Shown here one piece after another: positions 42,259-43,130 of a stretch of 50,197 bases of DNA. Position 1 is the first letter of the stretch, and every line of letters begins with the position of its first letter. The notes below the pieces were generated by a model. The model was not told the origin of the DNA. It did no database searches and saw nothing but the letters and a program-made list of their open reading frames with translations. Made by a program: the position numbers and the translations under genes. The DNA is from Bacteroidales bacterium (GTDB lineage: Bacteria; Bacteroidota; Bacteroidia; Bacteroidales; JAADJA01): assembly GCA_026984135.1 (NCBI GenBank), contig JALSSR010000093.1, positions 1 through 50,197 of the forward strand. Direction: 5' to 3'.

Positions 42259-42674
42259 AATATACAGTGTTTTATCACGTAGCGCCGCCACGAGTATGTT
42301 TTAAATATAGTCTGCCAATCTTCCCGCTGCGTCGCTGCGTCGCTGCGTGAGTTTTTAATCTTCGTCAAAATAATATCACGCCACGCCGCAGCGCCGCCGC
42401 GAATCTATTTTAATTTTAATCTTCCGAACCTTCTCGTTGCGTCGCTGCGTCGCCGCGTGAGGTATTTCTTCGTCTCAAAAAGTTCCACGCCACGCCGCAG
42501 CGTCGCCACGAATTTGTTTTGATTTCAATCTTCCAATTCTTCCCGCTGCGTAGTTGCGTCGCTGCGTGAGGTATTTCTTCGTCTCGAAAAGTTTCACGCC
42601 ACGCCGCAGCGTCGCCACGAGTCTGAATTAATTTCCATCTTTCAATTTTTTCCGCCGCGTCGTTGCGTCGCCGC

Positions 42675-42710
42675 CTGCCCGAATGGACTAATTCATTCGT
42701 TCGGGCGGGC
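42675..42710. repeat. 36-bp palindromic insert in an array arm (copy 1)
   Basis: CTGCCCGAATGGACTAATTCATTCGTTCGGGCGGGC. Confidence 0.9.
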
Positions 42711-42928
42711 GTGAGGTATTTCTTCGTCTCAAAAAGTTTCACGCCACGCCGCAGCGTCGCCACGAGTCTGAATTAATTTCCATCTTCCAATTCTTCCCGC
42801 CGCGTCGTTGCGTCGTCGCGTGAGGTATTTCTTCATCTCAAAGAGTTTCACGCCACGCCGCAGCGTCGCCACGAATCTGTTTTAATTTCAATCTTCCAAA
42901 CTTTTCCGCCGCGTCGTTGCGTCGCTGC

Positions 42929-42964
42929 CTGCCCGAATGGACTAATTCATTCGTTCGGGCGGGC
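42929..42964. repeat. 36-bp palindromic insert in an array arm (copy 2, identical)
   Basis: Identical to 42675-42710, at the equivalent position in another unit. Confidence 0.9.
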
Positions 42965-43130
42965 GTGAGGTATTTCTTCGTCTCAAAAAGTTTCACGCCC
43001 CGCCGCAGCGCCGCCACGAATTTATTTCAATCTTCCAAACTTTCTCGCCGCGTCGTTGCGTCGCTGCGTGAGGTATTTCTTCGTCTCAAAAAGTTTCACG
43101 CCACGCCGCTGCGTCACCGCGTGAACTCTT

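What the first reader, a model, noticed from the sequence alone, without database searches (positions are those of the whole stretch)
42276..43124. Strict 109-bp-period array of GC-rich dyads between an HD-domain gene and prsW
About 850 bp contain seven complete inverted-repeat units plus a leading half. Each unit has a GC-rich arm (CGCTGCGTCGCTGCGTCGCTGCGTGA type), an AT-rich spacer (ggtatttcttcgtctcaaaaagttt) and an inverted arm (TCACGCCACGCCGCAGCGTCGCCACGA type), joined by an AT-rich linker. Right-arm spacings are 101, 109, 109, 145, 109, 145 and 103; each 145 equals 109 plus the 36-bp insert. Since 109 is not a multiple of 3, the array is very unlikely to be coding. It fills the gap between two same-strand genes, so it could be transcribed as a chain of hairpins, act as a protein-binding or nucleoid array, or be an amplified palindromic element. 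I do not recognise it as a named element.
Basis: seen in the sequence. Interest (0 to 1): 0.82.

Follow-up and report, generated by a model that had tools for sequence, protein, structure and literature searches.

The report
Orphan repeat array of nuclease element
The 850-base repeat array is a gene-less, locally amplified copy of inverted repeats that in relatives (once in this very gap) flank a small nuclease gene of unknown role, and across the phylum those repeats change in step with the nuclease, suggesting an undescribed nuclease-plus-repeat genetic element.

Summary
The array is real and as described: seven dyads plus a half unit, 42275-43124, right-arm spacings 101/109/109/145/109/145/103. 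It is not a one-off. The arm, core GCGTCGYYGCGTCGYYGCGTGA, occurs about 95 times at about 34 intergenic places in this Bacteroidales-like genome, mostly as small arrays with place-specific linkers. In a same-genus genome the same HD-prsW gap holds the same cores around a GxxExxY gene (PF13366/TIGR04256, PD-(D/E)XK nuclease). In a second, a GxxExxY gene with related dyads sits directly behind the HD gene. Distant relatives have a 2-85 bp gap.

More generally, GxxExxY genes are flanked by inverted arms made of 8-11-bp words, lie sense-oriented between same-strand genes (48/57), and their arm words co-vary with the nuclease sequence across families (partial r 0.28, 0/300 permutations; distal flanks 0.04). 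So I read the window array as an orphan, amplified derivative of a nuclease-repeat unit that works like REP/RAYT but with an unrelated enzyme. Shown: synteny, flanking, co-variation. Inferred: that the nuclease recognises the repeats and drives their spread. The window genome has no detectable GxxExxY gene (92% complete; 10 of 34 array places lie at contig ends).

The parts
42275..42293 (-). leading half unit (right-type arm TCACGTAGCGCCGCCACGA) 16 bp before the prsW start
   Evidence: family D4
42324..42402 (.). dyad unit 1: left arm 42324-42350, AT-rich spacer, right arm 42376-42402
42434..42511 (.). dyad unit 2: left arm 42434-42460, right arm 42485-42511
   Evidence: hairpin -41 kcal/mol, z -5.5
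42542..42620 (.). dyad unit 3: left arm 42542-42569, right arm 42594-42620
42651..42765 (.). dyad unit 4 with 36-bp insert: left arm 42651-42674 + 42711-42714, right arm 42739-42765
42675..42710 (.). 36-bp palindromic insert CTGCCCGAATGGACTAATTCATTCGTTCGGGCGGGC inside the left arm of unit 4
   Evidence: sequence; exact search finds it only in this array among the fetched loci
42796..42874 (.). dyad unit 5: left arm 42796-42823, right arm 42848-42874
42905..43019 (.). dyad unit 6 with 36-bp insert: left arm 42905-42928 + 42965-42968, right arm 42993-43019
42929..42964 (.). second copy of the 36-bp insert, carried by the 254-bp block duplication
   Evidence: (D1: 254 nt, 91%)
43044..43124 (.). 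dyad unit 7: left arm 43044-43071, right arm 43096-43124, ending 7 bp from the HD stop
41596..42258 (-). PrsW-family intramembrane protease gene, downstream of the array in the direction of transcription
   Evidence: PF13367 E 2.4e-39; NF033739 214 bits
43131..43682 (-). HDIG-domain protein gene, upstream of the array; its 3' side carries GxxExxY genes in relatives
   Evidence: TIGR00277 28.7 bits, cut-off 27.6

Best explanation
The array is an orphan, amplified derivative of a 'GxxExxY element': a small PD-(D/E)XK nuclease gene flanked by inverted arms built of short repeated words, inserted sense-oriented between genes of an operon. In this genome the arms (word CGYYGCGT, i.e. ACGCRRCG on the other strand) exist without the gene at about 34 intergenic places and were expanded in tandem in place, each expansion copying the arm or dyad together with local flank; here the unit is a dyad plus linker, with one later palindrome insertion and a 254-bp block duplication. 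Most likely working: the nuclease (Cas4/lambda-exonuclease-like fold) recognises the word arms as DNA, probably extruded hairpins, and its cuts or processing promote copying and tandem amplification through repair, so that gene-less arrays behave like REP/BIME copies relative to a cognate enzyme. Shown here: anatomy, genome-wide family, same-gap synteny with a nuclease gene inside, inverted flanks, sense-in-operon bias, word-nuclease co-variation. Inferred: recognition, cutting, mobility, and that the gene was lost here rather than missed by assembly.
For: Same gap: G007 contig C111 (L053/L156) has prsW - cores - GxxExxY (L053:5519-5896) - cores - HD gene; HD 93% and PrsW 86% identical to the window. 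G014 (L158): GxxExxY with GCGTCTTTGCGTGA dyads directly 3' of the HD gene, 89.6% identical. Distant relatives have an HD-prsW gap of 2-85 bp; a third, similarly close locus (L054) has 172 bp with another inverted word type and no gene. Core next to GxxExxY also in G236:C19 (three dyads, period about 140) and G417:C23; 4 of about 36 core places outside the window genome lie within about 500 bp of such a gene, against 0.06 expected. Flanks of 52 GxxExxY genes: inverted match above the 95th percentile of mismatched pairs in 29, above the 99th in 14; words CACAGAG, CACAAAG, CGCAGAG in 21, 20 and 14 of 50 flanks against 4, 4 and 2 in distal flanks. Between two same-strand genes in 48 of 57 (baseline 55%, p 4e-6). 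Arm words co-vary with nuclease identity across families: partial r 0.28, 0/300; distal flanks 0.035, 104/300. Nuclease: invariant D67, E77, K79, PF13366 E 7e-37, model pLDDT 93.5, best PDB fold Cas4 SSO0001 (4ic1, TM 0.55) and LHK-Exo.
Against: No GxxExxY/PF13366 gene or remnant found in the window genome, nor in any of its array loci, although this genome has the most cores; 15 of 17 genomes of the genus have the gene, but G016 lacks it too. At genome level the gene is common anyway (60 of 120 Bacteroidota), so mere co-occurrence means little. Most core places in other genomes have no GxxExxY gene nearby, and most GxxExxY genes carry other words. No target-site duplication could be defined. 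No activity was measured. Co-variation could partly reflect common descent of whole gene-plus-flank units without any recognition.
Confidence: 0.68

Rival explanations
1. Ordinary REP/BIME-like extragenic repeats, spread by a RAYT (Y1 transposase) or by unknown means; GxxExxY genes merely insert into or pick up such repeats.
For: About 34 dispersed intergenic places; tandem 13, convergent 9, divergent 1 neighbour arrangements, as reported for REPs (PMC3733652); clusters with tandemly reiterated dimers plus flanking DNA are described for REPs there. A Y1 transposase gene lies 0.6 kb from one core.
Against: A single core does not fold like a REP (-4 to -6 kcal/mol) and has no GTAG end; the Y1 gene is surrounded by its own, different long repeats (direct-repeat score 440); word-nuclease co-variation is not expected.
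Confidence: 0.17
2. The array works as RNA: hairpins in the HD-prsW transcript set stability, processing or the ratio of the two products.
For: Both genes co-oriented; dyads fold with z down to -5.5; GxxExxY units lie sense in operons; arrays avoid divergent gaps.
Against: One of five tested units is hardly better than shuffles (z -1.65); many other arrays are direct repeats without dyads; no U-run after the stems; nothing specific to these two genes, since relatives do without.
Confidence: 0.1
3. Fixed-period binding array for a nucleoid or segregation protein.
For: 109-bp regularity in this array.
Against: Periods differ from place to place (34 to 190 bp); about 34 places on scattered contigs.
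Confidence: 0.03
4. Assembly artefact.
For: Metagenome assembly; the matching relative has a gap of N inside its array.
Against: Units differ from each other, linkers are specific, the contig continues on both sides in conserved synteny, and the same family occurs at about 34 places.
Confidence: 0.02

Closest known systems
REP/BIME elements with RAYT transposases (GTAG and CGTC super-families, PMC3733652)
   Same: Dispersed intergenic repeats, often as inverted pairs and tandem clusters with flanking DNA, mostly 3' of genes, with a cognate enzyme gene flanked by the repeats.
   Different: Single core is not a 20-40-bp hairpin with a GTAG/CGTC end; enzyme in relatives is a PD-(D/E)XK nuclease, not a Y1 transposase; repeats are phrases of 8-11-bp words that vary from unit to unit.
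GxxExxY protein family (TIGR04256 / PF13366 PDDEXK_3)
   Same: The gene that these arms flank in relatives, including the same gap.
   Different: Known only as a sequence family; the held library has two incidental mentions and no repeats. The gene is absent from the window.
MITEs and solo inverted repeats of insertion sequences
   Same: Gene-less copies with inverted ends of an element that elsewhere carries an enzyme gene.
   Different: Enzyme is not a transposase; arms are amplified in tandem with locus-specific linkers; no target duplication shown.
23S rRNA intervening sequences with S23 four-helix proteins (PF05635)
   Same: Small gene between inverted arms inside a transcribed unit (general knowledge).
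   Different: Protein family differs; PF05635 genes of this genome have no such arms.

Membership tests
REP (GTAG or CGTC tagged) | single unit is a short hairpin (stem 5-13 bp) with unpaired GTAG or CGTC end | tested here: not met
   single cores fold weakly (-4 to -6 kcal/mol) in inconsistent structures and end in GTGA; definition
REP/RAYT system | Y1 transposase gene flanked by the same repeat | tested here: not met
   three Y1 genes; the one near a core is surrounded by different long repeats
REP/BIME (arrangement only) | intergenic, unidirectional or convergent gaps, inverted dimers, tandem clusters | tested here: met
   13 tandem, 9 convergent, 1 divergent; dyads and arrays
CRISPR array | unique spacers between repeats | tested here: not met
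   spacers and linkers are copies of each other within each array
MITE | terminal inverted repeats plus target-site duplication | tested here: inconclusive
   inverted arms yes; no empty site close enough to show a duplication
GxxExxY element (as defined here) | inverted word arms on both sides of a GxxExxY gene | tested here: not met
   met in G007 and G014 at the same or adjacent place; window has arms but no gene, so it is filed as a gene-less derivative
PD-(D/E)XK nuclease (the gene in relatives) | conserved D...E-x-K motif and fold | tested here: met
   D67, E77, K79 invariant in 52 sequences; Cas4/lambda-exonuclease-like fold
PD-(D/E)XK nuclease (the gene in relatives) | nuclease activity on the arms | not testable with these tools
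   needs purified protein
Rfam RNA families | covariance-model score above threshold | tested here: not met
   only chance-level matches

The most novel reading that the evidence does not exclude
GxxExxY genes with their word arms form an undescribed class of selfish or mobile element: a solitary PD-(D/E)XK nuclease that recognises multi-word inverted repeats which evolve with it, spreads by insertion in sense orientation between operon genes, and leaves gene-less arms that amplify into arrays such as this one.
Probability: 0.45. Interest if true: 0.88.

Novelty: new variant of a known kind. Interest (0 to 1): 0.72.

Why it matters
GxxExxY is a very common annotated protein family (half of 120 sampled Bacteroidota have it, often several copies) with no stated role. 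Linking it to a co-varying repeat family gives it a testable substrate, explains a large set of unexplained intergenic repeats (CACAGAG/CGCAAAG/GCGTCGCT-type words), and points to an enzyme-repeat pairing outside the transposase world. The window genome, with about 95 cores and no detectable gene, and its close relative with the gene in the same gap, are a natural with/without pair.

Tried and rejected
Rfam scan: chance matches only. RAYT as owner of the repeats: the Y1 gene near one core has its own repeats. PF05635 (S23) as owner: no arms around its genes here. GxxExxY hidden in the window genome or in its array loci: none. 191-bp unit in 60 relatives: no match outside the own genome, because only the arms are shared. 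Genome-level co-occurrence of core and GxxExxY (16 of 17) was set aside as weak evidence because the gene is in 60 of 120 genomes and 15 of 17 of the genus. Literature by sequence string and by family name: nothing relevant. PADLOC: no defence model. PDB by sequence: none. CRISPR rejected (repeated spacers).

Full report
Observation. The array is present as described. Units 4 and 6 carry the same 36-bp palindrome at the same point of the left arm because a 254-bp block was duplicated (D1, 91% identity). It lies between an HDIG-domain gene (stop 43131) and a PrsW-family gene (start 42258), both on the minus strand.

A genome-wide family. The window is one whole contig of a 4.17-Mb metagenome-derived genome in 307 contigs, 92% complete; the nearest named records are Bacteroidales MAGs. 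The arm core GCGTCGYYGCGTCGYYGCGTGA occurs about 95 times with up to two mismatches against 14 for the reversed control; a slightly wider pattern occurs 84 times exactly against 0. They fall in about 34 places. Most places are small arrays whose linkers are repeated within the place but differ between places; periods are 34, 39, 41-42, 49 or about 110-190 bp. So arrays grew in place, copying arm plus local flank. With both neighbours visible, 13 lie between co-directional genes, 9 between convergent and 1 between divergent genes (ORFs called mechanically). Ten of about 34 places lie within 400 bp of a contig end, so assemblies break there (my count).

The partner gene. In the genus, cores of the GCGTCG type or the related GCGTCTYTGCGTCTTTGCGTGA type turn up in six other genomes, and in the phylum sample 11 other genomes have the wider pattern (12 of 399 with the window genome). 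From memory I suspected a link to GxxExxY genes (TIGR04256, PF13366, PD-(D/E)XK) and tested it. Of 17 core-positive genomes 16 have such genes; this alone is weak, because 60 of 120 sampled Bacteroidota have them. The place-level result is stronger: GxxExxY genes lie directly between or beside core dyads in G007:C111, G014:C113, G236:C19 and G417:C23, 4 of about 36 core places against about 0.06 expected (a rough Poisson estimate).

Same gap. G007:C111 (L156, also fetched independently as L053) is the orthologous place: prsW (86% identical), cores, GxxExxY gene, cores, HD gene (93% identical), then isocitrate dehydrogenase. In G014 (L158) the HD gene (89.6% identical) is followed directly by a dyad, a GxxExxY gene and a second dyad, then the aconitase gene. 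L054, of similar relatedness, has a 172-bp gap with another inverted word type and no gene; L057, L065, L071, L072, L083 and L126 have gaps of 2-85 bp. GxxExxY genes, intact or broken, also follow HD or isocitrate dehydrogenase genes in other lineages (L068, L073, L077, L079, L082, L087), the intact ones with inverted word arms placed between the upstream stop codon and the downstream start codon. The window array thus sits in a gap that such units use repeatedly.

General properties of GxxExxY units. For 52 genes, upstream and reverse-complemented downstream flanks match better than flanks of different genes: 29 exceed the 95th and 14 the 99th percentile of mismatched pairs. Enriched words are CACAGAG, CACAAAG and CGCAGAG (21, 20 and 14 of 50 flanks; 4, 4 and 2 in distal flanks), with raised self-similarity at 8-11 bp. 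The window core read on the other strand (TCACGCRRCGACGCRRCGACGC) has the same form with CGCARCG for CGCARAG. The genes lie between two same-strand genes in 48 of 57 cases, against a 55% baseline (p 4e-6); some of these places are orthologous to each other, so the p-value is optimistic. Repeated arm words co-vary with nuclease identity: partial correlation 0.28 with GC controlled, only pairs from different families and below 80% identity, 0 of 300 permutations as high; for distal flanks 0.035, 104 of 300.

The nuclease. The 125-aa protein from the same gap in G007 matches PF13366 (E 7e-37) and TIGR04256. In 52 homologues D67, E77 and K79 are invariant, the D...E-x-K motif. The model (pLDDT 93.5) resembles Cas4 SSO0001 (4ic1), LHK-Exo, Cas4 Pcal_0546 and lambda exonuclease (E 2e-3 to 7e-2, TM 0.47-0.57). 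That is a fold-level resemblance, not a close relationship. There is no solved relative by sequence and no defence model.

What is missing. The window genome has no PF13366 gene or remnant and none in its array loci; in the genus only it and G016 lack one. Either the gene was lost, or gene copies between repeats fell out of the assembly; several close relatives of the G007 protein do sit on very short contigs.

Mechanism. I favour a DNA-level model: the nuclease recognises the word arms, and cutting plus repair copies and amplifies them; gene-less arrays are its by-products or dependents, as REPs are to RAYTs. Anatomy, synteny, inverted flanks, orientation bias and co-variation are shown; recognition, cutting and mobility are inferred. 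An RNA role is possible: window units fold with z from -1.65 to -5.5, and the sense-in-operon bias fits read-through expression of the nuclease or a need to be transcribed.

Comparison. It works like REP/BIME plus RAYT but fails the REP definition (single core no proper hairpin, no GTAG/CGTC end, no matching Y1 gene). It is not CRISPR (repeated spacers). MITE status is open (no target duplication could be defined). In the papers held, GxxExxY has two incidental mentions and none of the repeat strings is described; subscription journals and preprints were not searchable, so absence of a report is not proven.

Noticed in passing
42675-42710 and 42929-42964: 36-bp palindrome CTGCCCGAATGGACTAATTCATTCGTTCGGGCGGGC nested in two dyads; looks like a second, unrelated small repeat. 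No exact copy in other fetched loci.
   Followed up: partly
L014, L031, L032, L038, L042, L050 (own genome array loci): Two further repeat families lie between or beside the cores: heptads CAGTCTT/CAGTCGG and a 45-bp unit GTGCCGAAGCTTTGCTTCGTGCATGCTCGACCGAAGGTCGGCAT.
   Followed up: no
L052 1600-3400 (G000:C235), L133: A Y1-transposase gene of RAYT type flanked by long direct repeats with CCTTATTACCTTATT, 0.6 kb from a core.
   Followed up: partly
37586-41475: Three plus-strand ORFs, two with type IX secretion sorting domains, lie between prsW and the aconitase gene; in L156 these two genes are adjacent, so this looks like a lineage-specific insertion.
   Followed up: no
L073, L077, L079, L082, L086, L087, L068: GxxExxY genes, some broken by stops, recur directly 3' of isocitrate dehydrogenase or HD genes in several lineages: an insertion hot spot in a central metabolic operon.
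   Followed up: partly
L160 1150-1500 (G236:C7): A gene-less three-dyad array with GCGACTTTGCG/TCACGCAAAGACGC words in another family of the class, resembling the window array.
   Followed up: partly
6858-6898: Two perfect 21-bp tandem copies TACCGTTAACTTTTTTTCTCC.
   Followed up: no
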